From Lacunisphaera limnophila (GTDB taxonomy: Bacteria; Verrucomicrobiota; Verrucomicrobiia; Opitutales; Opitutaceae), in NCBI RefSeq assembly GCF_001746835.1, contig NZ_CP016094.1:2991501-3055500 (forward strand): a stretch of 64,000 nt of DNA, read 5' to 3'. Shown piece by piece: positions 1,627 to 38,652 of this stretch. Position 1 is the first letter of the stretch, and each line of letters starts with the position of its first letter. Below the pieces are notes generated by a model, which did no database searches, had not been told where the DNA came from, and was given only the letters and a program-made list of their open reading frames with translations. The translations under genes were made by a program, and so were the position numbers.

Positions 1627-1654
1627 ATTTCAAATCTCAAATCTGAGATTCCCA
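1627..1654. repeat. Degenerate heptamer repeat (ATTTCAA/ATCTCAA type)
   Basis: Four units of 7 nt read ATTTCAA, ATCTCAA, ATCTGAG, ATTCCCA. The block ends 2 nt before the ATG at 1657, so it forms the untranslated leader of the next gene. It belongs to the 7-nt-period families described in the findings. Confidence 0.6.
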
Positions 1655-1656
1655 TC

Positions 1657-2297
1657 ATGAATCCCCATCTTCCCCGTCTCGACCGTCGCGCGGCCATCAA
1701 GTGGATGCTGGCCGCCTCGGCCACACTGGCTGTCACCGACCGCGGGGCCTTCGCCGCCCAAGCCGCCGCCCCCGCCACGAAGGGCTACGGCACCGACCCG
1801 CTCCTCAACCAGGAATACGCCCCGGCGCTTTCTGGCCGCTCACGATGACCGACGCCCAGCGCCGCACCGCCGCGGCCCTCTGCGGGCTCATCATCCCGGC
1901 CGAAGGCTCCGTCCCGAGTGCGGCGGACCTCATGGTCCACGACTTCATCGACGAGTGGATCAGCTCGCCGTATCCCGACCAGCAGGCCGATCGCGCGACC
2001 GTCCTCGCCGGCCTGGCTTGGATCGACACCGAGTCCCGCCGGCGCTTCGGCGCGGACTTCGCCGACCTGACGCCGGCGCAGATGGCCGCGATCGCCGACG
2101 ACGTCTGTCACGCCCCCGACGCCAAGCCCGAGCACGTCGAGGGCGCCCGCTTCTTCGCCAAGTTCCGCGACCTCACGGCCAGCGGCTTCTTCACCACCCC
2201 CGAGGGCATGTACGACCTCGGCTACCGCGGCAACACGCCCCTGGCCGAGTTCAAGGGTCCCCCGCGAGAAGTACTGGAGAAGCTGGGTTTGGTTTGA
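1657..2297 (+). pseudogene. Gluconate 2-dehydrogenase subunit 3 family protein, broken by a -1 frameshift
   Basis: The ATG at 1657 opens a frame with a twin-arginine-like leader (LDRRAAIKWMLAASATLAV) and the family's GYGTDPLLNQEY block. It then stops at 1846-1848. The rest of the protein (GAFWPLTMTDAQRRTAAALC through DLGYRGNTPLAEF to the stop at 2295-2297) continues in another frame. Adding one G at 1824-1825 restores the text YAPGAFWPLT expected of this family, giving about 213 residues. The family is the small subunit of membrane-bound sugar dehydrogenases and partners a GMC subunit, here the gene just upstream. Because that partner is intact and the lesion is one base in a CCCCGG run, sequencing error is as likely as true decay. 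Confidence 0.8.
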
Positions 2298-2310
2298 CCG
2301 TTGAAGGAGC

Positions 2311-2396
2311 GAGTAGCCAGTAGCGAGTAGCGAGCATCACGGAGCGCCGATTTCTGAGCATCTACTCACTACCCGCTACTCGCTACCCACTACCTA
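2311..2396. repeat. Two degenerate heptamer arrays (GAGTAGC and CTACTCG types)
   Basis: Positions 2311-2338 hold GAGTAGC, CAGTAGC, GAGTAGC, GAGCATC. Positions 2362-2396 hold CTACTCA, CTACCCG, CTACTCG, CTACCCA, CTACCTA. The two arrays are roughly reverse complements of each other, so the transcript of this spacer could fold back. The second ends 13 nt before the ATG at 2410. Confidence 0.7.
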
Positions 2397-2409
2397 ATCT
2401 TCCCCTACC

Positions 2410-3267
2410 ATGAACCGCCGCACCGCCCTCAGGACCCTCGCCGCCACCGCTCTGCCGTTCCTCGGCGCCCGCGCCCTGGCGGCTGCCGACCAACAACCCT
2501 CAACCGGCAGCCAACGTCCGCGTGAAACGCCCGCTTTCACGCTCGGCGTCGCCACCGTCACCCTCAAGAGCCTGCCGCTGGACAACATGGTCGCGGCCGT
2601 GCACCGCGCCGGGCTCGACACGATTTCCCTGCACCGCGCTCATTCGCCGTGGGAAAACCAACCCGGCCAGTGGCGCGACATTGCCGACCGGATCCACGCC
2701 GCCGGCATCAAGGTGGCCTGCTGCGGCGTGCTCTACCTTAAGAACGACGAGCCCGCGATCCGCCGCATGATGGAGTACACGAAAACCCTCGGCATTTCGC
2801 TCTTCAGCTGCAGCCCCGAGCCGGCCGCGCTGCCGGTTCTGAACAAGCTGGTCCAAGAATACGACCTGCGCGCCGCCATCCACAACCACGGGCCGGAGGA
2901 CAAGTCCTGGCCGTCAGTCAAAGGCGTGATGGACGCCATCGCCCCGCTCGACCCGCGCCTCGGGCTCTGCCTCGACGTCGGTCATTGCTACCGCAGCGGC
3001 GAGGACCCGGTGGCGATGATTCATGCCTGCAAGGACCGGCTCTATGACGTGCATCTGAAGGACACCATCGCCGCCGTCGGTCAGCACGGCGACACGCCAA
3101 TCGAGATGGGGCGGGGGAAGCTGGACCTGCGCGCGATCCTCGGTGCGCTCAAGGCCACCGGTTACGCCCATGGCGCCTGGCTCGAATACGAGAAGGACCC
3201 CAACGACCCGGTCCCCGGCCTCACCGAATCCGCCGGCTACATCCGCGGGTTGCTGGCCGCCCAGTAG
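2410..3267 (+). CDS. Sugar phosphate isomerase/epimerase family protein, exported
   Basis: This 285-residue protein begins with a twin-arginine/Sec-like leader (MNRRTALRTLAATALPFLGA followed by an Ala-rich cleavage region). It then shows the xylose-isomerase-like TIM-barrel pattern: FTLGVATVTLK at strand 1, HNHGPEDKSWP, LGLCLDVGH with metal-ligand type Asp and His, and YDVHLKD. Family members are metal-dependent isomerases, epimerases, or lyases acting on keto-sugars. The leader suggests it works in the periplasm next to the GMC dehydrogenase, which would fit processing of an oxidised sugar or glycoside. No clear Shine-Dalgarno is seen: TCTTCCCCTACC lies directly before the ATG. The exact reaction is unknown. 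Confidence 0.85.
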   Translation: MNRRTALRTLAATALPFLGARALAAADQQPSTGSQRPRETPAFTLGVATVTLKSLPLDNMVAAVHRAGLDTISLHRAHSPWENQPGQWRDIADRIHAAGIKVACCGVLYLKNDEPAIRRMMEYTKTLGISLFSCSPEPAALPVLNKLVQEYDLRAAIHNHGPEDKSWPSVKGVMDAIAPLDPRLGLCLDVGHCYRSGEDPVAMIHACKDRLYDVHLKDTIAAVGQHGDTPIEMGRGKLDLRAILGALKATGYAHGAWLEYEKDPNDPVPGLTESAGYIRGLLAAQ

Positions 3268-3372
3268 CGAGGAGTGGGCAGCGAGGAGTGCGCCAGTGCG
3301 ATCGATGCTTCCGCCCCCGAGGGCGGTCTCATCCTTCATATCGCAACCCACCGACAAGAGGCTGCGATTCCT

Positions 3373-3407
3373 CTACTCGCTACTCAGTACCCGCTACTCA
3401 CTACTTC
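3373..3407. repeat. Degenerate heptamer array (CTACTCG type)
   Basis: Five 7-nt units read CTACTCG, CTACTCA, GTACCCG, CTACTCA, CTACTTC. It is the same unit family as the array at 2362, about 1 kb away. It is followed by an AT-rich, promoter-like stretch before the MFS gene. Confidence 0.7.
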
Positions 3408-3435
3408 ATCAAAAATTTTGGTGTTCATTAATGGC

Positions 3436-3448
3436 GTAAACTGTTTTC
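3436..3448. promoter_or_regulatory. Candidate operator GTAAACTGTTTTC
   Basis: A near-palindrome (GTAAAC-T-GTTTTC) lies in a locally AT-rich stretch 40 bp upstream of the MFS start at 3489. The shape resembles LacI-family sugar-regulator operators. The window contains no LacI-type gene, so this is only a pattern-based suggestion. Confidence 0.25.
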
Positions 3449-3488
3449 ACTGGTGACGGTTTTTGCACCCCAACCCCCTCGATACCCC

Positions 3489-4709
3489 ATGAATCCCTCC
3501 CGTCTGTTCACGGCCAGTTGCGCCGCCCTGATCACCACTGCCATGAGTTTCGCCATCCGCGGTGGCGCGACCGGCGACTGGATCGCCCAGTTCAACCTGA
3601 CGAACGAGCAGGCCGGCTGGGTCAACGGCACGGCCTTCTGGGGCTTCACGCTCGCCATGATGTTCGGCGGCCCGCTCGTCGACACCCTCGGCTTCAAGAA
3701 GATCCTCGGCATCGCCTTCGTCGGCCACCTCGCCGGCATTCTGCTCACGATCTTCGCCTGGGATTTCTGGAGCCTCTTCGCCGGCACCTTGCTCTTCGGC
3801 ATCGCCAACGGCTCGGTCGAGGCGGCCTGCAATCCCCTCGTCGCCACGCTCTACCCGAAGGACCAGACCACCAAGCTCAACCATTTCCACGTGTGGTTCC
3901 CCGGCGGCATCGTGATCGGCGGCCTGCTCGCCTTCGTCTTCGCCAAGATGGGCCTCGGCTGGCAGGCGCAGTTCGCCACCATGTTGATCCCGCTCGCCGC
4001 CTACGGTTTCATGTTCATGGGCCAGGCGCTGCCCCAGACGCAGCGCGTGCAGCGCGGTGAGTCCACCGGCTCGATGTTCGCGGCCTGCGTCGCCCCGGGC
4101 TTCATCCTTATGGTGGCCTGCATGCTCCTCACCGCCGCCACCGAGCTCGGCTCCGGCCAGTGGATCCCGAATATTCTCTCGCACGCCGGCGTCTCGGGCA
4201 TCCTCGTTCTCGTCTGGATCAACGGCATCATGGCCGTCGGCCGCATGTTTGCCGGTCCCTTCGTCCACAAGCTCTCGCCCATCGGTATGCTCGTGATGAG
4301 TGCCATCCTCTCGACCCTCGGCCTCTACGCCATGAGCCACTCGACCGGCAACATGCTCTTCGCCGCCGCCACGGTCTTCGCCTTCGGCGTGTGCTTCTTC
4401 TGGCCCACGATGGTCGGCTACGTCGCCGAAAACTACCCGAAGACCGGCGCGCTCGGCATGGCCATCATCGGCGGCGCCGGCATGCTCTCCGTGAGCTTTG
4501 TGCTCCCGATCATCGGCCGCTGGTACGACGCCGGCATCGCCGCCCGCATGCCCGTGGGTGAGGCCCCCACCGGCGACGCCCTCGCTACCATCCAGTCCGC
4601 CGCCGGCCTCCAGGCCCTCGGCCAGGTCGCCGTCCTCCCGGTCGTGCTGACCGTTGTCTTCATCCTCATCGCCGTGATGAAGAAGAAGCCGGCCGCTGCG
4701 GCCCACTGA
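3489..4709 (+). CDS. MFS transporter, probable sugar or organic-acid carrier
   Basis: The 406-residue product is strongly hydrophobic with about 12 membrane segments in two halves and ends with a Lys/Ala-rich cytosolic tail (KKKPAAAAH). The first half has the conserved inter-helix stretch after TM2 (GGPLVDTLGFKKILG) typical of the major facilitator superfamily, and AACNPLVATLYP and FHVWFPGG resemble FucP/sugar-type MFS carriers. I chose the ATG at 3489; the frame is open further upstream but the extra residues do not look like protein. Position between two isomerase/epimerase genes suggests it imports the sugar or oxidised sugar handled by this cluster. The substrate is inferred only. Confidence 0.85.
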   Translation: MNPSRLFTASCAALITTAMSFAIRGGATGDWIAQFNLTNEQAGWVNGTAFWGFTLAMMFGGPLVDTLGFKKILGIAFVGHLAGILLTIFAWDFWSLFAGTLLFGIANGSVEAACNPLVATLYPKDQTTKLNHFHVWFPGGIVIGGLLAFVFAKMGLGWQAQFATMLIPLAAYGFMFMGQALPQTQRVQRGESTGSMFAACVAPGFILMVACMLLTAATELGSGQWIPNILSHAGVSGILVLVWINGIMAVGRMFAGPFVHKLSPIGMLVMSAILSTLGLYAMSHSTGNMLFAAATVFAFGVCFFWPTMVGYVAENYPKTGALGMAIIGGAGMLSVSFVLPIIGRWYDAGIAARMPVGEAPTGDALATIQSAAGLQALGQVAVLPVVLTVVFILIAVMKKKPAAAAH

Positions 4710-4733
4710 GCCCGGCGCCGCGCTGGGAAAGGG

Positions 4734-4846
4734 ACAAGTTTCAAGTAACAAGTGCCAAGAAACGAGCCAGTCCCCCTCTTGAAACTTGTTACTTGATCCC
4801 TGTTACTTGTTCCGTCCGTTCCTTGTTACCTGTCCCTTGATCCTTC
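4734..4846. repeat. Degenerate heptamer arrays (ACAAGTT/ACTTGTT types)
   Basis: Positions 4734-4761 read ACAAGTT, TCAAGTA, ACAAGTG, CCAAGAA. Positions 4784-4846 continue with ACTTGTT, ACTTGAT, CCCTGTT, ACTTGTT and decaying units for about nine repeats. The two parts are again reverse-complement-like, as at 2311-2396. Confidence 0.65.
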
Positions 4847-4852
4847 TCGCTT

Positions 4853-4917: not shown

Positions 4918-5955
4918 ATGCCTCGTTCCGTGACCCTCTTCACCGGCCAATGGGCCGACCTGCCTCTCACCAAGTTGGCCCCGCTCGCCAAGAAGCTGGG
5001 CTACGACGGCGTCGAACTCGCCTGCTGGGGCGACCACTTCGATGTCGATGCCGCGGCCTCGTCCGCGAAATACATCAAGGAGAAGTGGGAGCTGCTGCAG
5101 GATAACGGCCTCACCTGCTTTGCCGTCTCGAACCACCTCGTCGGCCAGGCGGTGTGCGACCTGATCGACGAGCGCCACAAGGCGATCCTCGCACCCGATG
5201 TCTGGGGCGATGGCGACCCCGAGGGCGTGCGCCGGCGCGCCGCGAAGAAGCTGATGCTCACCGCCAAGGCCGCCCGCCGCTTCTTCGACGCCAAGCCCGG
5301 CGCGACCAAGGGCGCCCCGGTCGTGGTCAACGGCTTCACCGGTTCCTCCATCTGGCACTCGATCTACGCCTTCCCGCCGACCTCGCAGGCCTACTGGGAC
5401 GCCGGTTTCGCCGACTTCGGCAAGCGCTTCGCCCCGATCCTCGCGGAGTTCGACAAGCAGAACGCCAACTTCGCCCTCGAGGTCCACCCGACCGAGATCG
5501 CCTTCGACATCGCCAGCGCCGAGCGCGCCCTCGCGGCCGTGAAGGGCCACAAGCGTTTCGGCTTCAACTACGACCCCTCGCACCTCGGTTACCAGGGCGT
5601 CGATTACGTGAAGTTCATCCGCACCTTCGGCCCGCGCATCTTCCACGCCCACATGAAGGACGTGTGGTGGGGCCACGGCAACGGCGAGGCCGGCGTCTTC
5701 GGCGGCCACACCAACTTCGGCGACGCCCGTCGCTTCTGGGATTTCCGCTCGGTGGGCCGCGGCGACATCAACTTCGAGGAGATCATCGTCGCCCTCAACG
5801 ACGTGAACTACACCGGCCCGCTCTCCGTCGAGTGGGAGGACATCCGCATGGATCGCGAGCACGGCGCCGCCGAGTCCTGCGCCTTCCTCCGCAAGCTCGA
5901 CTTCGCCCGCAGCCAGATCGCCTTCGACGCCGCCTTCGACAAGGAAAACCAGTAA
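4918..5955 (+). CDS. Sugar phosphate isomerase/epimerase family protein, cytosolic
   Basis: The product has 345 residues and no leader peptide. It shows the xylose-isomerase-like TIM-barrel signature: [16 protein letters not shown] at the N-terminal strand, [42 protein letters not shown] and [12 protein letters not shown]. These supply the Glu, Asp, His and Glu expected as metal ligands. It is a paralogue of the exported protein at 2410 but cytosolic, and the two Gfo/Idh/MocA dehydrogenases follow directly. Together they look like an intracellular arm for keto-sugar conversion. The reaction (isomerase, epimerase or keto-glycoside eliminase type) is not determinable from sequence alone. Confidence 0.87.
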
Positions 5956-5978: not shown

Positions 5979-6010
5979 GAGACCTGAGACCTGAGACCTG
6001 AGACCTGAAA
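5979..6010. repeat. Heptamer repeat (GAGACCT)n
   Basis: Four near-identical GAGACCT units stand in the spacer after the isomerase gene. The same unit recurs at 34245-34279 and in altered form at 36254-36274. A run of seven T follows at about 6031. Confidence 0.75.
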
Positions 6011-6054: not shown

Positions 6055-6128
6055 TCAGGTCTCAGGTTTCAAGTTTCAGGTTTCTCCGCCTCCTCCTTCT
6101 TCCTTCTTAATTCATCCTTCTTCCTTCC
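6055..6128. repeat. Two heptamer arrays (TCAGGTT and TCCTTCT types)
   Basis: Positions 6055-6085 read TCAGGTC, TCAGGTT, TCAAGTT, TCAGGTT. This is close to the reverse complement of the GAGACCT array upstream. Positions 6094-6128 read TCCTTCT, TCCTTCT, TAATTCA, TCCTTCT, TCCTTCC, ending 8 nt before the ATG at 6137. The second array is the pyrimidine-rich leader of the next gene. Confidence 0.7.
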
Positions 6129-6136
6129 CCAATCCC

Positions 6137-7219
6137 ATGAGCATCAAAATCGGAATCATCGGCGCCGGCGGCATGGCGAACTATCACGTGCCCGGCTTCC
6201 GCCAAGGCGGCGGCGAGGTCATCGCCCTATGTGACGTCAACGAGGCGGCCGCCCAGAAGGCCGCCGCCAAGCACGGCATCACCCGCGTCTTCACCGACGT
6301 GGGCGTCATGCTCAAGACCATGCCCGAGCTCGACGCCGTCTCGGTGATCGTGCCCAACAAGTTCCACGCGCCCCTCGCGCTCCAGTGCCTGGCGGCCGGC
6401 CGCCACGTGTTCTGCGAGAAGCCCCCCGCGCTGAGCGCCAAGCAGATGGCGCAGATGCTCGTCGCCGCCAAGAAGGCGAAGAAGAAGCTGATGTTCAATT
6501 TCAACAACCGCGCCCGGCCCGAGAGCTACGCCATGATGGACTACGTCGCGTCCGGCGCCGTCGGCACGATCAACACCTGCCAGGCCCGCTGGATCCGCCG
6601 CACCGGCATCCCCGGGTTCGGCGGCTGGTTCACCACCAAGGCACTCTCCGGCGGCGGCCCGCTCATCGATCTCCTCCACATGATCGACCTCGGGCTCTTT
6701 TTCATGGGCTACCCCGACCCGGCGCACGTTCTGGCCCGCACTTTCGACACCCACATCACCGACAAGTCCTTCAAGGGCCCCTGGGGCATCCCCGACGTGG
6801 CCAACGGCGTGACCGATGTCGAGGCCGCCGCCCACGGGTTCATCACCTTCAAGACCGGCCAGGCCATGTCGTTCCAGGTCTCCTGGGCCGAGATGAACCA
6901 GCGCGAGGAGGTGTCCGTCACCTTCCAGGGCACCAAAGCCGGCGGCATGGTCCGCCGCCTCTTCGGGGTCGATGGCATCGACGCCACCGGCATCGACAGC
7001 TGCGAACTCTACTCGCAGGAGCACGGCCGCCCCGTCAACCGCAGCATCCTCGTCCCGCCCGACGAGGCCATGGGCCGCATCCGCTCCGCCGCGAACTTTG
7101 TCCGCGCCATCACGGGCGCCGAGGCCCCGCTCAACACCCCCGAGCAGGCCCTGGCCCTGATGCGCATCATCGACGGCGCCTACAAGTCCTCCGCCACCGG
7201 GAAGCCCGTCGCGCTCTGA
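6137..7219 (+). CDS. Gfo/Idh/MocA family NAD(P)-dependent oxidoreductase
   Basis: This 360-residue protein opens with the Rossmann motif IGIIGAGGMANYHVPG (residues 4-19) and has the family's VIVPNKFHAPLALQCLAAGRHVFCEKP block, with the conserved EKP near residue 95. GGPLIDLLHMIDLGLFFMG follows, including the catalytic-region Asp/His pair. Such enzymes oxidise or reduce sugars, keto-sugars or inositols with a bound NAD(P). No export signal is seen. It lies between the cytosolic isomerase and a second family member, so I infer a role in redox steps on 3-keto or related sugars. Substrate not determinable. Confidence 0.88.
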   Translation: MSIKIGIIGAGGMANYHVPGFRQGGGEVIALCDVNEAAAQKAAAKHGITRVFTDVGVMLKTMPELDAVSVIVPNKFHAPLALQCLAAGRHVFCEKPPALSAKQMAQMLVAAKKAKKKLMFNFNNRARPESYAMMDYVASGAVGTINTCQARWIRRTGIPGFGGWFTTKALSGGGPLIDLLHMIDLGLFFMGYPDPAHVLARTFDTHITDKSFKGPWGIPDVANGVTDVEAAAHGFITFKTGQAMSFQVSWAEMNQREEVSVTFQGTKAGGMVRRLFGVDGIDATGIDSCELYSQEHGRPVNRSILVPPDEAMGRIRSAANFVRAITGAEAPLNTPEQALALMRIIDGAYKSSATGKPVAL

Positions 7220-7330: not shown

Positions 7331-7358
7331 AACAACTAACAACCAGCAACCAACAACT
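7331..7358. repeat. Heptamer repeat (AACAACC type)
   Basis: Units AACAACT, AACAACC, AGCAACC, AACAACT form the leader of the gene at 7372. The perfect version of this unit is at 8860-8894, and its reverse complement GGTTGTT recurs at 21096, 28738 and 36127. Confidence 0.7.
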
Positions 7359-7371: not shown

Positions 7372-8547
7372 ATGAAACTTAATCGCAAACTCCGTATGGG
7401 CATGGTCGGCGGTGGCCGCGGTGCCTTCATTGGCGCCGTGCACCGCATGGCCGCCCGTCTCGATGGTGAGATCGACCTGGTCGCCGGCTGCTTCTCCTCC
7501 GATCCCGCGAAGTCCAAGGCTTCCGGCGAGGACTTCTTCCTCGATCCGTCCCGCGTCTACGCCAGCTACGCGGAGATGGCCAAGCGCGAGGCCGCGCTGC
7601 CCGCGGACCAGCGCATCGACTTCGTGTCGATCGTCACGCGCAACAACACGCATTACGCCGTGGCCAAGGCCTTCCTCGAGGCCGGCATCCACGTGGTGTG
7701 CGACAAGCCCCTGTGTTTCACGCTCGCCGAGGGCCGTAAGCTGCAGGCGCTGGTGAAGAAGAGCGGCCTGGTTTTCGCCCTCACGCACAACTACACCGGT
7801 TACCCGATGGTGAAGGAGGCCCGCGAGTGGGTCCGCGGCGGCCGACTCGGCCGGCTCCTGAAGATCGTCGTCGAGTACCCGCAGGGCTACGCCATCACCG
7901 CCCTCGAGCAGCAGGGCGACGGCGCCATTTCCAACTGGCGCATGGACCCGTCCGTGTCCGGCGCCTCCAACTGCATGGGCGACATCGGCACGCACGCGCA
8001 CAACCTCGCCCGTTACATCACCGGCCTGGAGATCGACGAGATCTGCGCCGAGCTGAGCACCTTCATCCCCGGCCGCCCGCTGGATGACGACGGCAACTGC
8101 TTGATCCGCTTCGCCGGTGGCGCCCGCGGCATCCTCTACGCCTCGCAGATCTCGAGCGGCGAGGAGAACAACCTCAACATCCGCGTCTTCGGCACGAAGG
8201 GCTCGCTCCAATGGTTCCAGGAGAACCCCAACGAGCTGATCTGGAAGAAAGCCGACGCCCCGCAGGAGGTCCACCGTCGCGGCAACAATTACCTGTCCGC
8301 CGCCGCCCAGGGCGCCGCGCGCACGCCCTTTGCTCACCCCGAGGGCTTCATCGAGGCCTTCGCCAACGTGTACCGCGCCGCCGCCACCGCGATCGCCGAC
8401 CAGGTCGCCGGCCGCAAGGCCCCGAAAGCCGGCTACGATTACCCCACGGTGGACGACGGCGTCGCCGGCCTGGCCTTCATCGAGAGCGTGGTGAAGAGCT
8501 CCAAGAAGGGCGCCAAGTGGGTGAAGTTCCCGAAAATGAAGGTGTGA
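7372..8547 (+). CDS. Gfo/Idh/MocA family oxidoreductase
   Basis: From the ATG at 7372 the product has 391 residues. It shows the Rossmann motif MGMVGGGRGAFIGAVH (residues 9-24), VSIVTRNNTHYAVAKAFLEAGIHVVCDKP with the family's E/DKP motif, then LTHNYTGYPMVKEAREWV and the GDIGTHAHNLARY segment with the conserved Asp and His. It is diverged from its neighbour at 6137, so the two probably handle different intermediates. The frame is open upstream to 7285, but that part overlaps dispersed repeats and the pyrimidine-rich CTCCTTCCTCCTCCC sits directly before 7372. It appears to be the last gene of the sugar cluster. Confidence 0.88.
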   Translation: MKLNRKLRMGMVGGGRGAFIGAVHRMAARLDGEIDLVAGCFSSDPAKSKASGEDFFLDPSRVYASYAEMAKREAALPADQRIDFVSIVTRNNTHYAVAKAFLEAGIHVVCDKPLCFTLAEGRKLQALVKKSGLVFALTHNYTGYPMVKEAREWVRGGRLGRLLKIVVEYPQGYAITALEQQGDGAISNWRMDPSVSGASNCMGDIGTHAHNLARYITGLEIDEICAELSTFIPGRPLDDDGNCLIRFAGGARGILYASQISSGEENNLNIRVFGTKGSLQWFQENPNELIWKKADAPQEVHRRGNNYLSAAAQGAARTPFAHPEGFIEAFANVYRAAATAIADQVAGRKAPKAGYDYPTVDDGVAGLAFIESVVKSSKKGAKWVKFPKMKV

Positions 8548-8712: not shown

Positions 8713-8859
8713 CTTATCGCTCGATTGGGGCAGGGTCTGAACGCCCCCGTCTGCTTCCAACCCCCGATCCTCCGGATTTTAACCACGGATCACGCGGATG
8801 GATACGGATAAAATCACCAATAATACTAACCACCAATCACTAACGGACATTTAGTCCCC

Positions 8860-8894
8860 AACAACCAACAACCAACAACCAACAACCAACAACC
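8860..8894. repeat. Perfect tandem heptamer (AACAACC)x5
   Basis: Five identical AACAACC units with no mismatch. This is the cleanest example of the 7-nt-period repeats in the window. Confidence 0.9.
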
Positions 8895-8977: not shown

Positions 8978-9016
8978 AATTCATTTGTTCGCGCCAATCT
9001 CGCGAACAAATGAATT
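8978..9016. promoter_or_regulatory. Perfect 16-bp inverted repeat upstream of the secreted-protein gene
   Basis: AATTCATTTGTTCGCG (8978-8993) and its exact reverse complement (9001-9016) flank a 7-nt loop, 34 nt before the ATG at 9051. No T-run follows. It could be a regulatory mRNA hairpin, an operator, or a terminator for read-through from the left. Confidence 0.55.
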
Positions 9017-20568: not shown

Positions 20569-21087
20569 ATGGAAACGGGTCGTGAGGATCAGCTGAAGTT
20601 CGCCAAGCATTTTGAGCGGGCGCAGGGGTGGCTGTTGCTGGAGAACTACACGGCGGCGGATCGGGCGCTGCGGCTCATTCCGAAGACGTTTCGGGGGCGG
20701 CCAGAAGTGGCGCAGTTCCGGGCGCAGTTGCATCTGGCGGCGGGGCGGTGGGCGCGGGCGGTGCCGCTGCTGCGGCGGTTGCAGAAGCAGGATCCGACGG
20801 AGCCGCAATATGCCGTGAGCCTGGCCTTTGCGGTACGGCGGGCGCAGTCCATCGCGAAGGCGGAGCAGATCCTGCTGGAAGCCAGTCGGCGCTTTCCCCA
20901 CGAGGCGGTCATCTGGTTCAACCTCGCCTGCTATGCCGCCCAGCAGGGCGATATCCCCAACGCCTTCGGCTTGCTCCGCGCCGCCGTCAACCGGGACGTG
21001 GCCTACCGCGATCTGGCCAAGACCGATAGCGATCTGGCTCCGTTCTGGGCGGCTGTGAACGCGGGGACGGTGGAGAAGCCGTGGTGA
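20569..21087 (+). CDS. Tetratricopeptide-repeat-like protein
   Basis: The 172-residue, leaderless protein consists of paired helices spaced like TPR units: FERAQGWLLLENYTAADRAL, then FRAQLHLAAGRWARAVPLLR, then AVSLAFAVRRAQSIAKAEQI and WFNLACYAAQQGDIPNAFGL. It ends DLAPFWAAVN, a pattern seen in small bacterial TPR proteins whose last repeat is followed by D(P/A)LxxLW-like text. TPR proteins are adaptors for protein-protein contact. It lies just outside the defence island, and GC content returns to the genome level here. No partner can be named. Confidence 0.7.
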   Translation: METGREDQLKFAKHFERAQGWLLLENYTAADRALRLIPKTFRGRPEVAQFRAQLHLAAGRWARAVPLLRRLQKQDPTEPQYAVSLAFAVRRAQSIAKAEQILLEASRRFPHEAVIWFNLACYAAQQGDIPNAFGLLRAAVNRDVAYRDLAKTDSDLAPFWAAVNAGTVEKPW

Positions 21088-21095
21088 GTATGGGT

Positions 21096-21123
21096 GGTTG
21101 TTGGTTGTTTGTTGTCGGTTGTT
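21096..21123. repeat. Heptamer repeat (GGTTGTT)n
   Basis: Units GGTTGTT, GGTTGTT, TGTTGTC, GGTTGTT follow the stop of the TPR gene by 8 nt. GGTTGTT is the reverse complement of the AACAACC unit at 8860. Confidence 0.75.
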
Positions 21124-21135
21124 GGGGGGATTGAA

Positions 21136-24950: not shown

Positions 24951-25153
24951 AGCAGTGGAGCTGAATCCGGAGCGGGAGAAGATCGCGGAGGCACGAAAGA
25001 GCGGAAGCGCGGAGCAACCGCCGTCGCCCGAAGGGCTGGAACACGGCAGCAGGATTGGTCGTGGCGGACGATGGACTTTTTCGTATTTCCGCTCCTCCGC
25101 GTTTCCGCGATCCCGGATTCTTCGCTTGGCGCCGGGCGGAGTCGCGGCATTGA

Positions 25154-25892: not shown

Positions 25893-25957
25893 GAGGGTGC
25901 GAGGGTATGAGGGTGTGAGGATTGGGGATCTCAAATCTCAGATTTCAAATTTGAAAT
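25893..25957. repeat. Octamer array followed by a heptamer array
   Basis: Octamers GAGGGTGC, GAGGGTAT, GAGGGTGT, GAGGATTG are followed 5 nt later by heptamers CTCAAAT, CTCAGAT, TTCAAAT, TTGAAAT. The end unit GAGGATTG also closes the octamer array at 26209-26240. Confidence 0.7.
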
Positions 25958-26353: not shown

Positions 26354-26442
26354 TGTCACTTGATACCTGATACTTGTTACTTGTTTCCTCCTGCATTGAG
26401 ATCCGCGTTTTCAGATTTGAGATCTGGCATTTGCGATTTGTG
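26354..26442. repeat. Two heptamer arrays (TGATACT and ATTTGAG types)
   Basis: Positions 26354-26388 read TGTCACT, TGATACC, TGATACT, TGTTACT, TGTTTCC. Positions 26408-26442 read TTTTCAG, ATTTGAG, ATCTGGC, ATTTGCG, ATTTGTG. They lie upstream of the GH5 start at 26486. Confidence 0.7.
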
Positions 26443-27691: not shown

Positions 27692-27726
27692 GGATGGGGG
27701 AGAAACCTGAGACCTGAAGGGAATCA

Positions 27727-27754
27727 GTTGTCGGATGTTGGTTGCTGGTTGTTG
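27727..27754. repeat. Heptamer repeat (GTTGTTG type)
   Basis: Units GTTGTCG, GATGTTG, GTTGCTG, GTTGTTG in the spacer after the GH5 gene. Confidence 0.6.
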
Positions 27755-27986: not shown

Positions 27987-28706
27987 GTGAATTCCCTGCA
28001 GCCCCTTCCTCCCTACCACCGCATCCGGGCGGTGGGATCGTTTGCGGAACTGGCGGCGGCACGCCTGGCGGACGGCGTGAATGCGTTGTGCTGGGAGCGG
28101 ACACTGGCGGGGGATTTCGCGGAGGTCGTGCGGGCGCTGGCGGCGGCGCGTCACGATGAAGAAGCCATCGACGTGGTCGACGAAGACCGGCTGAAAGCAC
28201 TGGCACTGAGCGCCCGGGGAAAAGAGGCGGTCGCGGTCATCCTCCAGGACCTGCGTTGGCTGCGGGAGCAGGAGCGCGATCCGGTGTTGAATTGCATTTA
28301 CGGCTACCCGCGGGATGAGGAGGCGGGGCCGGTAGTAACAGATGTGTTTTCCTGGCACGCGGACAGCGCGCCGGTCGAGGCCGATACTTGGCTGTGCACC
28401 TATCACGGCTCGCCGAGCGAGGGTCTGCGTAACGAGGAGACGCGGCGGAAGGTGGACGACGCGGTGATCCGGGCCGAGCTGCTCCGGACCTACGGTGGGG
28501 CGGATGACGAGGGGTTCCAGGAATTTCTGCACGAGCACTGCTACGATCTGCATTATGCGCCGAAGCCGGGGGCGCAGCCGTATTCCTTCGGGATCAGGAA
28601 TCTCTGGCGCATCGCCGTCGACTGGCCGGGCAGCCCGGTGCCGCCCTGCGTGCACCGCGCCCCGGCGACGATCGCGGGGGAGCCGCGGTTGATGGTGATT
28701 TGCTAG
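27987..28706 (+). CDS. DUF1826-like protein (tentative)
   Basis: The 239-residue, leaderless protein starts at a GTG. LADGVNALCWERTLAGDFAE, VILQDLRWLREQERDPVLNC, DVFSWHADSAPVEADTWLCT with YHG, and the ending PCVHRAPATIAGEPRLMVIC recall DUF1826. The arrangement HxD … GSPSEG … VHR resembles the iron-binding facial triad of 2-oxoglutarate-type oxygenases. I cannot confirm this fold without a profile search. The protein contains several Cys and Trp residues around this core. It is not obviously linked to its neighbours and appears monocistronic. Confidence 0.5.
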   Translation: MNSLQPLPPYHRIRAVGSFAELAAARLADGVNALCWERTLAGDFAEVVRALAAARHDEEAIDVVDEDRLKALALSARGKEAVAVILQDLRWLREQERDPVLNCIYGYPRDEEAGPVVTDVFSWHADSAPVEADTWLCTYHGSPSEGLRNEETRRKVDDAVIRAELLRTYGGADDEGFQEFLHEHCYDLHYAPKPGAQPYSFGIRNLWRIAVDWPGSPVPPCVHRAPATIAGEPRLMVIC

Positions 28707-28737
28707 GGGCGGGAGCTAGGCGCGAGGCGCGCCTAGC

Positions 28738-28819
28738 GGTTGTTGGTTGTTAGTTGACCCGCCTTCGCCCGGGGGGCTACGGCGCGGCAAGGGGGGCAAG
28801 ATTTCAGATTTGAGATTTG
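28738..28819. repeat. Heptamers GGTTGTT, a GACCCGCC…GGCAAG copy, then heptamers AGATTTG
   Basis: 28738-28758 reads GGTTGTT, GGTTGTT, AGTTGAC. 28756-28791 is a GACCCGCCTTCGCCC … GGGCTACGGCGCGGCAAG copy. 28799-28819 reads AGATTTC, AGATTTG, AGATTTG. Three repeat families are packed into 82 bp. Confidence 0.65.
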
Positions 28820-28986
28820 GGCCGGGGGGCTCGCGGCTTCAGGGTCGTCGAGCAACCGCGCACCGCTTGCTCGCAAATTCTGCATGACTTTGGGCAAGGG
28901 GTGCAGCGATCACGGGGGGGGCCGGGACTATATTCACCGGCCGGCGATGATCCCCGTCGCGGCAATTCACGGTCGCTCCCCCTCCC

Positions 28987-31807: not shown

Positions 31808-31915
31808 TGTAGGGCGGGGTCGCCGAACCCCGCCTTTCTGCGATGACCATATCACGTTCACGGCGGGGTTGCTTCGCCATCTCCGCCGAGCCTCCGTCGG
31901 CGACCCCGCCCTACA
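31808..31915. mobile_element. 108-bp MITE-like element, copy 1 (19-bp terminal inverted repeats)
   Basis: Left end TGTAGGGCGGGGTCGCCGA; the right end is its exact reverse complement, ending CCCGCCCTACA. The core has CATATCACGTTCACGGCGGG and no coding capacity. A second element of exactly 108 bp is at 43194-43301. No target-site duplication is obvious. Confidence 0.65.
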
Positions 31916-34244: not shown

Positions 34245-34320
34245 GAGACCTGAGACCTGAAACCTGAGACCTGAGACCTGAAATTGGACGACGACAGGGA
34301 TCTGTGATTTCAAATTTCAA
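34245..34320. repeat. Heptamer repeats (GAGACCT)5 and (ATTTCAA)2
   Basis: 34245-34279 holds GAGACCT, GAGACCT, GAAACCT, GAGACCT, GAGACCT. 34307-34320 holds ATTTCAA twice. These lie after the glycosidase gene and before the convergent DUF2934 gene. Confidence 0.75.
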
Positions 34321-35346: not shown

Positions 35347-35414
35347 GGATGCGGCGGGTGTCGCCTGTCACACAAACGGTGCCACAATCGTCAGTCGTCC
35401 AAGGCCGGATGATG

Positions 35415-35577
35415 TGTCACCTATTGCGTGACATGTTTGCGAAGCGCCGTCGGTGGGGCAGCTGGCACTTATTATGAGACAGGTATACGGATGCGCCGAG
35501 GAGGTGAACACGTCACTTAATACGTGACATGTGCGGCGGCTCGTACGGATCCAGAAGATGTCACTTATTAAGTGACG
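35415..35577. repeat. Four palindromes at exact 48-bp spacing
   Basis: Sites start at 35415 (TGTCAC-CTATTGC-GTGACA), 35463 (TGGCAC-TTATTAT-GAGACA, degenerate), 35511 (CGTCAC-TTAATAC-GTGACA) and 35559 (TGTCAC-TTATTAA-GTGACG). Each is 19 bp and the 29-bp intervals differ in sequence. The array ends 30 bp before the Nudix start at 35608. It could be a multi-site operator or an iteron-like binding array. Four units, a short degenerate repeat and no cas genes argue against CRISPR. Confidence 0.75.
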
Positions 35578-35607
35578 TGTTGGGGGCGAGAGGGCTAGGG
35601 TCGAGGG

Positions 35608-36123
35608 ATGGGACAGAATCTGGAGGAACTCTTTGATGTCGTGGATGAGCAGGACCGCGTGATCGGGCAGGAGCGGCGGCGTGAGGTGCACCGGCTCGGG
35701 CTGCGGCACCGGGCGGTGCACCTGCTCGTGGTGAACCGGGCGGGGCGGGTGTTTCTGCACCAGCGCTCGAGGCAGAAGGATCTGTTTCCGGGCTACTGGG
35801 ATTCCTCCGCGGCGGGGCATGTGGGTGCGGGCGAGGACTACGACGGCACGGCCGTGCGGGAGTTGGAGGAGGAGCTCGGGTGCCGGCCGGACCAGCCGCC
35901 GCGGCCGCTGTTCAAGATCGAGGCGCGGCCGGAGACGGGGCAGGAATTTGTGTGGGCCTACCTGGTGGAGGCGGAGGGGCCGTTTGTGCTGCACCCCGAC
36001 GAAATCGAGCGCGGGGACTGGTTCACCAAGGAGGAGATCGACCGCTGGCTGGTGGAGCGGCCGCAGGAGATCGCGCCGGCGCTGCACTATATCTGGCCGA
36101 GGGTGAGGCCTCACCTGGGGTGA
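35608..36123 (+). CDS. Nudix hydrolase (isopentenyl-diphosphate isomerase-like)
   Basis: The 171-residue protein has a complete Nudix box, GHVGAGE (70-76), seven residues, REL (84-86) and EEELG (87-91), fitting Gx5Ex7REUxEExGU. The flanks LEELFDVVDEQDRVIGQERR and DLFPGYWDSSAAGHVGAGED resemble the YfcD/Idi-like group that hydrolyses nucleoside-diphosphate derivatives or acts on isoprenoid-type diphosphates. The start follows the palindrome array by 30 bp, so it is the most likely target of that regulation. Substrate unknown. Confidence 0.88.
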   Translation: MGQNLEELFDVVDEQDRVIGQERRREVHRLGLRHRAVHLLVVNRAGRVFLHQRSRQKDLFPGYWDSSAAGHVGAGEDYDGTAVRELEEELGCRPDQPPRPLFKIEARPETGQEFVWAYLVEAEGPFVLHPDEIERGDWFTKEEIDRWLVERPQEIAPALHYIWPRVRPHLG

Positions 36124-36126
36124 GGC

Positions 36127-36154
36127 GGTTGTTGGTTGAGGGTTGTTGGTTGTT
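36127..36154. repeat. Heptamer repeat (GGTTGTT)n
   Basis: Units GGTTGTT, GGTTGAG, GGTTGTT, GGTTGTT directly after the Nudix stop. Confidence 0.75.
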
Positions 36155-36165
36155 GGGGCCGGGCC

Positions 36166-36274
36166 CCTTCGACTTCGCTCAGGGTGATTTGCTGGCAAAT
36201 CAGAGGGTGTGAGGGCGCGAGGGTATGAGGGTGTGAGGATTTGGGGGCTGGATCCTGAGACCTGAGGCCTGAGA
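36166..36274. repeat. CTTCGACTTCGCTCAGGG repeat, octamer array and heptamer array
   Basis: 36166-36205 is the CCCTTCGACTTCGCTCAGGG type with TTTGCTGGCAAA. 36203-36242 has five octamers GAGGGTGT, GAGGGCGC, GAGGGTAT, GAGGGTGT, GAGGATTT. 36254-36274 has CCTGAGA, CCTGAGG, CCTGAGA. Confidence 0.65.
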
Positions 36275-36285
36275 TCGGGTCGGGT

Positions 36286-36418
36286 GGGCGGCGAGTTGGC
36301 TCGCGCAGGGTTCGGAGCGCGACCTAGGTAACTGGCCTACGACAGACACCGGAGCGCGACCCTTTCGGCAAGCTCAAGGCCCTGTGCCAGTCGAACGGGC
36401 AAGGTCGCTGGCCCACGG
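36286..36418. repeat. Composite dispersed repeat (GGCGAGTTGGCTCGCGCAGG …)
   Basis: Modules GGCGAGTTGGCTCGCGCAGG, GGAGCGCGACCTAGGT, GCGACCCTTTCGGCAAGCTC, GAACGGGCAAGG and TCGCTGGCCCACGG. The same modules in other orders are at 26251, 27795 and 31701. Confidence 0.6.
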
Positions 36419-36503
36419 GAAGTAACGCAACGGGGTCGCGGCGGCTTCAGGATCGGCCCAACAACCAACAACGAACCACCGATAACGGGCGGCGCCGCCG
36501 CCA

Positions 36504-36740: not shown

Positions 36741-36959
36741 GCCCATGCGGGCAGGTTGGGTGGGGAACACCCACGCTGCCAAGTACCAAGTGGCATGGAA
36801 CAAGGAGCAAGGAGTCACGGCGGGGAGCTTAGGGCTAAGCGCTGAGGGCGTGGGCAGGTGACACGGGGGCGGGAGGTCGAGCCAACCTGCCCGGAGGTCA
36901 GGTTCCACCTTTATACCTGTTACTTGCCACGGGCGACTCCGGTCCCATTGTGGCGGGGA

Positions 36960-37673
36960 ATGCTCATTCGAAAATGCATCCTCGGGCTCACCTTGCTCTC
37001 GCTGGCGGTCAGCGGACAGGCGCAGCTAGGCGCGGAGATTGCGCAGAAGCATGCGGAGCGGGCGGGCGACAAGCTCGCGGCGGTGAAGTCGCTGCGGGCG
37101 GAGGGGCGGACCTTCATCAGCGGGGAGATGGTGCCGTTCACGCTCACGGCGGAGCGGCCGAACCGGTTGCGGGTGGACAGCTTTTCGCCGGTGCGCCGGG
37201 TGATCCAGGGTTACGATGGGGAGAGCCCGCCGTGGATCAGTCACTCGGAGCACAAGGGCGGCGCGATCCAGGCCATGCCGGCGCCCGATGCGAAGGATTA
37301 CATCGCCAATGCGGACTTCGACGGCCCGCTCGTGAACTACGCGGCCAAAAAGTATTCCGTGGACTACGCGGGTGAGGACACGATCGAGGGGCGCCGGGCC
37401 TACAAGCTCCTGATGATGAGCCCCAGCGACGACATCTTCTTCCTGTGGGTGGACACCGAAAACCACGAGGTGGTGAAGCGCACGGTGTACCGGGCCAACC
37501 AGCAGGGCCGCGTGACGATCGAGACTTTCTTCAAGGACTTCCGTCCGGTGGCCGGCGTGTTGCAGCCGCACCGCATCGAGACGACGTCCAATGGGCGGCT
37601 GGTCTACGTGATGGTGATCGACGAGATGAAGGCGAACGTCGAGGTGCCGGTGGGGACGTTTGCGGCGCCGTAA
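36960..37673 (+). CDS. LolA-like outer-membrane lipoprotein-sorting family protein
   Basis: The 237-residue protein has a Sec leader (LIRKCILGLTLLSLAVSGQA). The mature part contains KLAAVKSLRAEGRTFISGEM, then FTLTAERPNRLRVDS, GRRAYKLLMM, DDIFFLWVDTENHEVVKRTV and FKDFRPVAGVLQPHRIETTS. This is the half-barrel pattern of LolA/LolB-like proteins, close to those annotated as outer membrane lipoprotein-sorting proteins. It would bind lipid or acyl chains in the periplasm. It is more likely a paralogue than the housekeeping LolA, since no lol genes lie nearby. The start was chosen at the leader. Confidence 0.72.
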   Translation: MLIRKCILGLTLLSLAVSGQAQLGAEIAQKHAERAGDKLAAVKSLRAEGRTFISGEMVPFTLTAERPNRLRVDSFSPVRRVIQGYDGESPPWISHSEHKGGAIQAMPAPDAKDYIANADFDGPLVNYAAKKYSVDYAGEDTIEGRRAYKLLMMSPSDDIFFLWVDTENHEVVKRTVYRANQQGRVTIETFFKDFRPVAGVLQPHRIETTSNGRLVYVMVIDEMKANVEVPVGTFAAP

Positions 37674-37760
37674 GGCACCAAGGCAGGGTCTCACGCAAAG
37701 GCGCTAAGACGCGAAGAAGAGAGGAGTGGGCTCCTTGGCGGCTTGGCGGCTTTGCGTGAA

Positions 37761-38573
37761 CTAGGAATCCTTCGACAGCTCGGCGGCGCGGGCGGTGGCG
37801 GCGGCGATGGTGTCGCGGAGGGTGGCGCGGAAGTCGCGCTGGGCGAGGACCTGGAGGCCGGCATAGGTGGTGCCGTTGGGCGAGGTCACCTTGTCGCGGA
37901 GCGTCTCGGGGGGCTGGCCGCTGCGGGCGAGGAGCCGGGCGGCGCCGAGGGTCGTCTCGAGGGCGGCGCGGTAGGCGACGTCGGGGGGCAGGCCGGCGGC
38001 GACGGCGGCGTCGCGGAGACCGGCGACAAATTCAAAGAGGAAGGCCGGGCCGCTGCCGCCGACGGCCGTCAGGGCATCGAAATAGGATTCGTCGAGGGCG
38101 GCGAACTGGCCGAGGGCGTTGAGCAGGCGCTCAACGAGGGCGCGGTCGGCCTCGGCCAGGGGCGCGAGGGAGCAGTAGGGGGTGAAGGCGGCGCCGATGG
38201 CGGCGGGGGTGTTGGGCATCGTGCGCACGAGGGCGCGGGCGTGCGGGAAGGTGCGGGCGAGGGTGGCGAGTTTTTTGCCGGCGAGGACGGAGAGCACGAG
38301 TTTGCCGCGGGTGAGCTCGGCGAGGCGCGGGTCGGCGGCGGCGAGGGATTGGGGCTTGAAGGCGACGATGACGGTGTCGGCCCCGGCGAGCAGGCGGGCG
38401 AGGTCGGCCTCATGGCCGATGCCGGTGTCGGCGGCGAGCTTCCGGGCGGTTTCGCCGCCCTTGCTGGTGCAGACCAGGTCGGCGGGCGCGCAGACCTTCT
38501 CGTCCAGCAGGCCGCGGACGATGGCGGATGCGAGGTTACCGGCGCCGAGGAAGGCGATGCGGGGGGAGGGCAT
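37761..38573 (-). CDS. proC: Pyrroline-5-carboxylate reductase
   Basis: The 270-residue protein catalyses the last step of proline biosynthesis, the NAD(P)H-dependent reduction of pyrroline-5-carboxylate. It begins with RIAFLGAGNLASAIVRGLL (Rossmann GxGxxxxA), has VIVAFKPQSL, VRTMPNTPAAIG and the C-terminal signature DALTAVGGSGPAFLFEFV, plus VTSPNGTTYAGLQVL. Length matches the family. A heptamer repeat (38625-38652) lies in the spacer upstream on the way to the kinase gene. Confidence 0.95.
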   Translation of the reverse strand: MPSPRIAFLGAGNLASAIVRGLLDEKVCAPADLVCTSKGGETARKLAADTGIGHEADLARLLAGADTVIVAFKPQSLAAADPRLAELTRGKLVLSVLAGKKLATLARTFPHARALVRTMPNTPAAIGAAFTPYCSLAPLAEADRALVERLLNALGQFAALDESYFDALTAVGGSGPAFLFEFVAGLRDAAVAAGLPPDVAYRAALETTLGAARLLARSGQPPETLRDKVTSPNGTTYAGLQVLAQRDFRATLRDTIAAATARAAELSKDS

Positions 38574-38624
38574 GGGGGCGGGGGACTGAGGATAGAGGAC
38601 GGATGACAGAGGGCGGAGGGGCTG

Positions 38625-38652
38625 AAATTAGAAATCTGAGATTTGAAATTTA
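38625..38652. repeat. Heptamer repeat (AAATCTG type)
   Basis: Units AAATTAG, AAATCTG, AGATTTG, AAATTTA lie between proC and the kinase gene; the remaining 230-bp spacer shows nothing else recognisable. Confidence 0.6.

What the first reader, a model, noticed from the sequence alone, without database searches (positions are those of the whole stretch)
1627..38652. Degenerate tandem repeats with an exact 7-nt period in the spacers, many unit sequences, often forming gene leaders
At more than twenty loci the spacer divides cleanly into 7-nt units that vary by one or two bases: 1627 (ATTTCAA), 2311 (GAGTAGC), 2362 and 3373 (CTACTCG), 4734 and 4784 (ACAAGTT/ACTTGTT), 5979 and 34245 (GAGACCT), 6055 (TCAGGTT), 6094 (TCCTTCT), 7331 and 8860 (AACAACC, five perfect copies), 21096, 28738 and 36127 (GGTTGTT), 25930, 26354, 26408, 27727, 28799, 36254, 38625. 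The period stays at 7 while the unit changes completely, and several arrays end within 15 nt of a start codon (1657, 2410, 6137, 7372). Arrays often come in reverse-complement pairs that could form long hairpins. From memory, the closest analogue is the STRR heptamer system of filamentous cyanobacteria. A common slippage or copy mechanism acting on 7-nt words would explain one period with many sequences.
Basis: partly seen in the sequence, partly recalled or inferred. Interest (0 to 1): 0.78.

Follow-up and report, generated by a model that had tools for sequence, protein, structure and literature searches.

The report
Inverted seven-letter word arrays between genes
Short gaps between genes in this bacterium hold arrays of 7-letter DNA words that often face each other as mirror-image arms, and related species carry different words at the same gap, so the layout persists while the wording is replaced.

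Summary
All 22 named sites show a 7-nt period. In 1.2 Mb of the same genome, spacers hold 57 lag-7 arrays against 0-5 at lags that are not multiples of 7, and 1 in shuffled spacers. Of 89 codirectional arrays in 2.06 Mb, 63 belong to five dispersed word families. Of 39 start-proximal arrays, 21 face a complementary arm 1-23 nt after the previous stop codon. They are one class of a larger set of inverted modules (arm and loop each about 27 nt), with 8-9-nt words and GTAG-type REP dimers. At one orthologous junction in 46 loci, word class or presence changed at least 21 times. Neighbouring AGTAGCG units avoid identity here and in other genomes, and arms of one module match no better than arms swapped between modules in five of six word families. 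Simple unit slippage is not enough. Best reading: REPIN-like inverted modules gained and replaced at gene junctions in a genome without a Shine-Dalgarno signal. Closest print precedent: Xanthomonas GGGAATC heptamers. New variant of a known kind.

The parts
1619..1646 (+). ATTTCAA/TCTCAAA-type heptamer array just before predicted start 1657 (weak gene call)
   Evidence: 15/21 lag-7 matches
2308..2334 (+). AGTAGCG arm, 5' arm of a stop-to-start module, 10 nt after the stop ending at 2297
   Evidence: TRF period 7; inverted repeat score 17
2362..2393 (+). CTACYCR arm, 3' arm of the same module, 16 nt before start 2410
3370..3404 (+). CTACYCR arm in the 3268-3488 spacer; a decayed AGTAGCG-like stretch follows the stop at 3267 (by eye)
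   Evidence: 14/21, weak
4729..4760 (+). ACAAGTT-type 5' arm, 19 nt after the stop ending at 4709
   Evidence: inverted repeat score 18
4777..4813 (+). CTTGTTA-type 3' arm
5979..6008 (+). GAGACCT x4.3, 5' arm, 23 nt after the stop ending at 5955
   Evidence: 21/21 at lag 7; inverted repeat score 22
6055..6084 (+). AGGTCTC/TCAGGTT 3' arm of the same module
6094..6127 (+). TTCTTCC array, leader of gene 6137, second word family in the same spacer; no complementary arm found
7331..7357 (+). AACAACC leader array, 14 nt before start 7372; no complementary arm found
   Evidence: 17/21
8858..8894 (+). CCAACAA x5.3 perfect array in a long spacer
   Evidence: 21/21
21095..21125 (+). GGTTGTT array starting 7 nt after the stop ending at 21087
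   Evidence: 18/21
25928..25955 (+). TCTCAAA array; opposite-sense TTTGAGA array at 26413 in the same 894-nt spacer
   Evidence: 17/21
26358..26385 (+). ACTTGTT/ACTTGAT array
   Evidence: 18/21
26413..26440 (+). TTTGAGA array
   Evidence: 15/21
27724..27751 (+). GGTTGCT/GGTTGTC array 32 nt after the stop ending at 27691
   Evidence: 16/21
28729..28756 (+). GGTTGTT array after the stop ending at 28706
   Evidence: 15/21
28799..28826 (+). AGATTTG array
   Evidence: 15/21
34245..34281 (+). GAGACCT x5.3 array
   Evidence: 19/21
36127..36156 (+). GGTTGTT array 3 nt after the stop ending at 36123; facing CCAACAA array at 36458-36479 in the same convergent spacer
36246..36273 (+). CCTGAGA array between those two arms
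   Evidence: 15/21
36458..36479 (+). CCAACAA array, inverted partner of 36127
38574..38651 (-). GGACGGA/TCCTCCG and AAATTTC arrays; the former ends at the start of minus-strand gene 37761-38573
37691..37759 (.). convergent-spacer module with CGCAAAG-type words (8-9 nt spacing)
   Evidence: inverted repeat score 19
24981..25112 (.). module with GATCGCGGAGG...CCTCCGCG-type arms, not period 7
   Evidence: inverted repeat score 16
43194..43301 (.). GTAG-tagged REP-like dimer (TGTAGGGCGGG...CCCGCCCTACA)
31808..31915 (.). GTAG-tagged REP-like dimer

Best explanation
Many of the arrays are arms of intergenic inverted-repeat modules. A typical module reads: stop codon, a few nt, about 4 units of a heptamer (usually purine-rich), a loop of about 27 nt, about 4 units of the reverse complement, some nt, next start codon. 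The modules behave like REPINs or REP dimers: each genome holds its own repertoire of word families, and modules are gained, lost and replaced at gene junctions, most often close behind stop codons. Shown here: dispersal of a few families, inverted same-family pairing, junction position, and different words at an orthologous junction in related genomes. Inferred: they move or are copied as DNA elements and stay where they do no harm. The pyrimidine-rich, G-poor arm lies in front of start codons in a genome with no Shine-Dalgarno signal, so it may serve as an unstructured leader. Slippage would then only adjust unit number, with identical neighbours being lost. The mobilising enzyme is not identified.
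For: Inverted repeats with score at least 14 occur in 101 of 593 codirectional, 39 of 135 convergent and 9 of 163 divergent spacers of 60-260 nt, against 1, 0 and 0 in one shuffle of each spacer. Arm median 27, loop median 27; 5' arm within 12 nt of the stop in 67% against 43% for random placement. 21 of 39 start-proximal arrays have a complementary arm (score 12 or more) after the stop; 14 of 39 reach p 0.02 or less against 60 other spacers, which include the same families. 20 of 28 spacers with two or more arrays hold an inverted same-family pair, purine/G-rich form first in all 20. Orthologous junctions with G012 and G017: where this genome has a module the relative has one in 8 of 9; where it has none, 18 of 54 (Fisher p 0.0026); in 7 of those 8 the words differ by eye. 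One junction in 48 loci: 23 with inverted repeats in 7 classes, 19 compact spacers under 70 nt, 6 neither; at least 21 changes of label on the tree of 46. Patchy repertoires: AGTAGCG pattern in 11 of 145, GAGACCT pattern in 15 of 145 genomes. Shine-Dalgarno-like 4-mers at 1,492 genes: 9.7% near, 8.1% far; E. coli by a near-identical script 60% and 6% of 53.
Against: Loops are shared within the GTAG family (25% of pairs score 10 or more) but hardly within word families (CACAGAG 0/21, CGCAAAG 0/10, CGCGGAT 0/10, AAGGAAG 5% of 78, AGTAGCG 11% of 45, the last two partly arm remnants). Loops of word families match the rest of the sampled genome about as poorly as shuffled loops. Fresh copies of whole modules should share loops. 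No target duplication was tested and no transposase link was shown; this genome has two Y1 transposase hits, tied to no module. With both spacers 60-300 nt the ortholog test weakens (8/9 against 12/24, p 0.056), and in the eighth shared junction (3243851) the relative keeps an arm like ours beside another module. L025 and L027 share much of a loop, so that pair looks inherited, not two arrivals. 3' arms are not closer to starts than random placement (50% within 20 nt against 59%). 18 of 39 start-proximal arrays had no complementary arm. One pair seen by eye (25928/26413) and the modules at 702594 and 1470135 run pyrimidine-first; over all words 73 of 101 5' arms are over half purine.
Confidence: 0.45

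Rival explanations
1. Local replication slippage with a preferred 7-nt step makes the arrays in place, as the first reader proposed and as Mrazek 2007 proposed for bacterial heptamers (known here only through PMC4679880 and PMC4692102).
For: Period 7 far exceeds other periods. Some arrays are perfect (5979, 8858). Arm length differs between L025 and L027 while much of the loop is kept. A perfect GAGACCT run of at least 13 units in G012.
Against: Adjacent identical units are depleted in AGTAGCG arrays: 5/44 against 27% here (p 0.0095); 4/50 against 25% in other genomes (p 0.0016); and in listed pattern hits of four genomes 10/51, 3/29, 6/46, 1/24 against 30-33%. TTCTTMM: 23/86 against 37% (p 0.021). 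GAGACCT shows no depletion (9/25 against 37%). The same families recur genome-wide and paired arms share one family.
Confidence: 0.17
2. The modules are RNA hairpins kept by selection between cistrons: they bring stop and start codons together, guard the upstream mRNA end, or are cut by a double-strand RNase; any word serves as long as the arms pair.
For: Similar arm and loop sizes across unrelated words and reuse of the same junction. Between loci of one family arms differ less than loops: CACGGAA 4% and 9% against 49%, AGTAGCG 14% and 19% against 38%, CACGAAA 17% and 14% against 57%, though some pairs may be separate arrivals.
Against: Among mismatches in 101 codirectional modules G-U type is rarer than A-C type (71 against 104, p 0.015), the opposite of selection for RNA pairing; convergent 26 against 31, divergent 5 against 7. 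Arms of one module pair no better than arms swapped between modules in 5 of 6 word families; the sixth, CACGAA (p 0.0038), mixes words. T-runs of 4 follow 5 of 112 modules, so they are not intrinsic terminators.
Confidence: 0.2
3. The arms are DNA or RNA binding arrays for word-specific proteins, or translation leaders bound by S1 or cold-shock type proteins.
For: Start-proximal arrays are C 43%, T 35%, G 9% (28 of 89 codirectional arrays). No Shine-Dalgarno signal. Proposed for TAACTGA arrays in PMC4679880.
Against: Needs a different binder for each word, does not explain the facing arm after the stop codon, and was not tested here.
Confidence: 0.1

Closest known systems
GGGAATC heptamer repeats of Xanthomonas and GGGGA(C/T)T of Nostoc (Rehm et al. 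2015, PMC4692102; abstract and passages seen)
   Same: Heptamers, mostly four units, between codirectional genes, G-rich strand sense after stop and antisense before start; 70 and 75 facing pairs in two Xanthomonas species; rare between divergent genes.
   Different: There one G-rich word per lineage, explained by G-quadruplexes; here several families, most without G-runs, and different words at an orthologous junction in related genomes.
REP / REPIN elements, GTAG-tagged palindromes (PMC3733652, passages seen; PMC3116915, listing only)
   Same: Short inverted elements, genome-specific families; dimers with variable spacers are reported, and O. terrae (Verrucomicrobia) is called highly enriched in GTAG repeats. 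GTAG-type dimers sit beside the word modules here.
   Different: Word modules have tandem-array arms, no constant GTAG/CGTC end tag and mostly unshared loops.
TAACTGA direct repeats of Beggiatoaceae (PMC4679880, abstract and sections 3, 8, 13 read)
   Same: Heptamer arrays right before start codons, mostly without a Shine-Dalgarno sequence.
   Different: One word, direct arrays; 169 direct sets against one indirect repeat.
STRR heptamers of filamentous cyanobacteria (recalled; Calothrix case mentioned in PMC4692102)
   Same: Several heptamer words in intergenic arrays.
   Different: Other phylum and words; whether STRR form such inverted modules was not looked up.
GGGACCG x4 elements of Geobacter metallireducens (PMC2700814, passages seen)
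   Same: Four tandem heptamers at many loci (49).
   Different: One alignable family, also inside genes.

Membership tests
Bacterial heptanucleotide simple sequence repeats | Tandem 7-nt units over-represented in spacers | tested here: met
   57 lag-7 arrays against 0-5 at lags not multiples of 7 and 1 shuffled
Cyanobacterial STRR | Cyanobacterial host | tested here: not met
   Closest loci are Opitutaceae
Cyanobacterial STRR | The STRR words themselves | not tested
   Words are recalled only and were not searched
Xanthomonas/Nostoc G-quadruplex heptamers | Runs of three or more G in each unit | tested here: not met
   AAGGAAG, GAGACCT and CCAACAA units hold no GGG on either strand; AGTAGCG arrays hold GGG only at the G-variant of a unit (listing, by eye)
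Xanthomonas/Nostoc G-quadruplex heptamers | Word sense after stop, antisense before start, facing pairs | tested here: met
   20 of 28 multi-array spacers hold such a pair
REP / REPIN | GTAG or CGTC tag beside a palindrome | tested here: not met
   Seen for the GTAG families only; AAGGAAG, GAGACCT, CACAGAG arms carry no such tag; AGTAGCG contains GTAG in every unit, not as one end tag
REP / REPIN | Inverted dimer at gene ends, genome-specific families | tested here: met
REP / REPIN | Mobilised by a Y1 (RAYT) transposase | tested here: inconclusive
   Y1_Tnp in 25 of 38 genomes, 2 hits here, no link to a word
Intrinsic terminators | Hairpin followed by T-run | tested here: not met
   TTTT within 12 nt after the 3' arm in 5 of 112
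MITE | Shared interior | tested here: not met
   Interiors mostly not shared in word families
MITE | Target duplication | not tested
   -

The most novel reading that the evidence does not exclude
Each genome owns a small vocabulary of words that an unknown enzyme writes, unit by unit from a degenerate template, onto both sides of a break or junction, which is then closed with filler. The layout (word)n - unique filler - (reverse complement)n, with words running toward the centre, arms drawn independently from one pool and neighbours seldom alike, is that of two fused miniature telomere-like ends. It would be a non-transposon way of seeding repeats.
Probability: 0.05. Interest if true: 0.9.

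Novelty: new variant of a known kind. Interest (0 to 1): 0.55.

Why it matters
In the papers seen, heptamer arrays in bacteria are put down to polymerase slippage or to G-quadruplexes. Here the same layout is built from words most of which cannot form quadruplexes, neighbouring units avoid identity, and the word at one junction differs between close relatives while the layout stays. That separates layout from sequence and makes the origin and use of such modules testable in Opitutaceae that can be grown.

Tried and rejected
Rejected or weakened: (1) purely local slippage (neighbour tests). (2) RNA helix kept by compensatory change (swapped-arm test; G-U against A-C, (14 against 25)). (3) Palindrome made in place by template switching: the two arms of a module should then match each other better than arms of other modules, and in five of six word families they do not. 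(4) Intrinsic terminators. (5) Loops as copies from elsewhere in the sampled half of the genome: mean longest match 12.2-13.8 against 11.6-13.5 for shuffled loops in word families, no test of the difference. (6) G-quadruplex: few G-runs. (7) Control that failed: the reversed-pattern control is useless for TTCTTMM because the pattern is its own reverse. (8) A claim dropped on checking: that AGTAGCG came to the studied junction four separate times. The tree needs four gains or losses, but L025 and L027 share much of a loop, so repeated loss or replacement fits as well; I lowered the main odds from 0.5 to 0.45 and raised slippage from 0.15 to 0.17.

Caveats: gene calls come from a home-made caller that gives a small bonus to Shine-Dalgarno-like starts. 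Only 2.06 of 4.2 Mb was read. One search's 'relatives' row (0/18) held a duplicate species and was replaced by the de-duplicated test. In one search pairs from one array overlap, G024's list was cut, and its arrays partly repeat those. L023 was labelled CACGGAA by the script though its arms read mostly CACGAAA. The junction study used the 47 of 83 relatives' loci in which both genes were found, plus this genome; the tree left out L068 and L070 as same-species copies of L006 and L040, and 14 of its 43 inner branches are unresolved. Of 30 loci fetched, 14 were distinct. 14 of 83 relatives' loci hold a lag-7 array in their few spacers. Print searches: six sequence strings (none), and term sets (none; 15 of 46 listed; 12 of 15 listed); in the listings I saw no report of these words in this group. 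Nothing wider is claimed.
Full report
Observation. The window lies at 2991501-3055500 of a single-contig 4.2 Mb genome. On the tree of one protein its closest row is a Lacunisphaera metagenome bin. Across 1.2 Mb, spacers hold 57 lag-7 arrays, 24 at lag 14, 11 at lag 21 and 0-5 at the other lags from 2 to 24; shuffled spacers hold 1 and coding DNA 12 in 1.05 Mb. In 2.06 Mb there are 87 at lag 7, 34 at lag 14, 13 at lag 8, 7 at lag 9. E. coli has none in 11.8 kb of spacers, and same-genus G012 has 7 in 37.8 kb.

Word families. One search lists 56 arrays in 1.2 Mb. Of 89 arrays in codirectional spacers of 2.06 Mb, 63 fall in five families: AGTAGCG 23, AAGGAAG 23, GAGACCT 6, CCAACAA 6, CCGTCCG 5; the rest are rarer words. 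Variation is held to certain positions: in units close to CTACYCR (at least 5 of 7, so partly by choice), position 5 is T 130 / C 66, position 7 mainly G 114 / A 60, and each other position holds one base in over 85% of units. The same two-state alphabet is seen in other genomes. The CTACYCR pattern occurs in 11 of 145 genomes of the phylum, 9 of them among the 15 of this family (63 overlapping hits here, 0 in G012). GARACYT occurs in 15 of 145, including distant families (87 hits in G012, 21 here). TTCTTMM occurs in 12 of 145, without a usable control. A spaced relative, CACGRAA with 2-nt linkers, occurs in 11 of 96, not in this genome.

Layout. In codirectional spacers, 27 arrays near the stop are A 34% G 33% and 28 near the start are C 43% T 35% G 9%; 34 more lie elsewhere in the spacer. 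Of 39 start-proximal arrays, 21 have a complementary stretch (score 12 or more) 1-23 nt after the preceding stop. Of 28 spacers with two or more arrays, 20 hold an inverted pair of one family, in all 20 with the purine- or G-rich form first. The other 8 hold different families or repeats in one sense, and one of them (25928/26413 in the window) holds a pair inverted by eye that runs pyrimidine-first. A period-free search finds inverted repeats (score 14 or more) in 101 of 593 codirectional, 39 of 135 convergent and 9 of 163 divergent spacers, against 1, 0 and 0 in one shuffle of each. The set includes heptamer families, 8-9-nt families (CACAGAG, CGCAAAG, CGCGGAT) and GTAG-tagged REP-like dimers; arms and loops each have a median of 27. 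5' arms crowd the stop codon (67% within 12 nt against 43% by chance), while 3' arms do not crowd the start (50% within 20 nt against 59% by chance); 73 of 101 5' arms are over half purine.

Turnover at one place. In 48 loci with the gene pair 4918-5955 and 6137-7219 (47 of 83 relatives' loci, and this genome), the junction is compact (under 70 nt) in 19, holds an inverted repeat (score 12 or more) in 23, and neither in 6. The words include GAGACCT (here), AGTAGCG, CACGGAA, CACGAAA, CACAGAG and CGCTAA. On the protein tree of 46 rows the label (word class, compact or none) changes at least 21 times (shuffled mean 25.4, none of 200 as low, so there is some inheritance). AGTAGCG needs four separate gains or losses even by well-supported branches. 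Sister rows differ: this genome GAGACCT against L006 AGTAGCG; L027 AGTAGCG against L024 CACAGAG. L025 and L027 share much of a loop, so their module is probably one old copy that was replaced or lost in their sister rows. Against G012 and G017, junctions that hold a module here hold one in the relative in 8 of 9 cases, against 18 of 54 otherwise (p 0.0026); with both spacers 60-300 nt, 8 of 9 against 12 of 24 (p 0.056). By eye the words differ in 7 of the 8 shared junctions; in the eighth (3243851) the relative keeps an arm like ours beside another module.

Tests of mechanism. Slippage predicts that neighbours are alike. In AGTAGCG arrays identical neighbours are 5 of 44 against 27% expected here (p 0.0095), 4 of 50 against 25% in 19 distinct arrays from 18 loci of other genomes (p 0.0016), and 10 of 51, 3 of 29, 6 of 46 and 1 of 24 against 30-33% in the listed pattern hits of G124, G119, G014 and G024 (p 0.002-0.025, pairs not independent). 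In TTCTTMM arrays they are 23 of 86 against 37% (p 0.021); in GAGACCT arrays there is no departure (9 of 25 against 37%). Selection for an RNA stem predicts more G-U than A-C mismatches and better pairing within than between modules. Found: G-U 71, A-C 104 in codirectional modules (p 0.015), and no better pairing within modules in AGTAGCG, AAGGAAG, CACAGAG, CGCAAAG and CGCGGAT (p 0.24-0.86); CACGAA, a mixed family, gives p 0.0038. Copying of whole modules predicts shared loops: seen for the GTAG family (25% of pairs), rare in the word families, whose loops match the rest of the sampled genome about as poorly as shuffled loops. The modules are not intrinsic terminators. The origin of the inverted pair is therefore open. 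I rank REPIN-like gain and replacement first, because dispersal, patchiness and different words at the same junction are shown, but the unshared loops speak against simple copying of the whole unit.

Leaders. Shine-Dalgarno-like 4-mers are 9.7% near and 8.1% far upstream of 1,492 genes, 7.5% and 6.1% of 294 in G012, and 60% and 6% of 53 in E. coli with a near-identical script. Leaders here lose G and gain C toward the start. A pyrimidine-rich arm before a start is thus at least compatible with starting translation; that it helps is inference.

Comparison. The nearest print case is GGGAATC in Xanthomonas: four-unit heptamers, facing pairs (70 and 75 cases), sense after stop and antisense before start (PMC4692102, passages seen). 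Its quadruplex explanation cannot apply to words without G-runs. TAACTGA arrays before starts (PMC4679880, abstract and sections 3, 8, 13) and GTAG repeats of O. terrae (PMC3733652, passages) are further relatives. The proposal that 7 nt reflects the stretch held by the polymerase is Mrazek 2007 as cited in those papers; I did not read the original. The searches listed no paper that I recognised as describing these words in this group.

Verdict. What seems new is that one layout is filled by many interchangeable words, with turnover at a fixed junction and, in the AGTAGCG family above all, neighbours that avoid identity.

Noticed in passing
2.06 Mb of the genome; 1,492 genes: No Shine-Dalgarno signal (9.7% near against 8.1% far) and a C-rich base run before starts; the same lack of signal in G012 (294 genes).
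   Followed up: partly
window 31808-31915 and 43194-43301; 40 modules of score 13 or more in 2.06 Mb: GTAG-tagged REP-like dimers, a quarter of loop pairs alike; the most common named inverted family in the sampled part.
   Followed up: partly
window 8544, 25892, 26209, 36203: GAGGGTGT/TGAGGGTG arrays with period 8 (16 at 8544), a second period class.
   Followed up: no
own genome 702594 and 1470135; L256: A pyrimidine-first module (TCATTCTCGTTCTC...GAGAACGA-like), opposite in polarity to most other words; at 1470135 and in L256 it sits next to an AGTAGCG-family array.
   Followed up: no
window 35507-35581 and 8978-9016: Strong inverted repeats unlike the word families (AACACGTCACTTAATACGTGACAT; perfect 16-nt arms AATTCATTTGTTCGCG).
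   Followed up: no
G012 contig position 2187349-2187444: A perfect run of at least 13 GAGACCT units, longer than the perfect arrays in the window (5.3 units).
   Followed up: no
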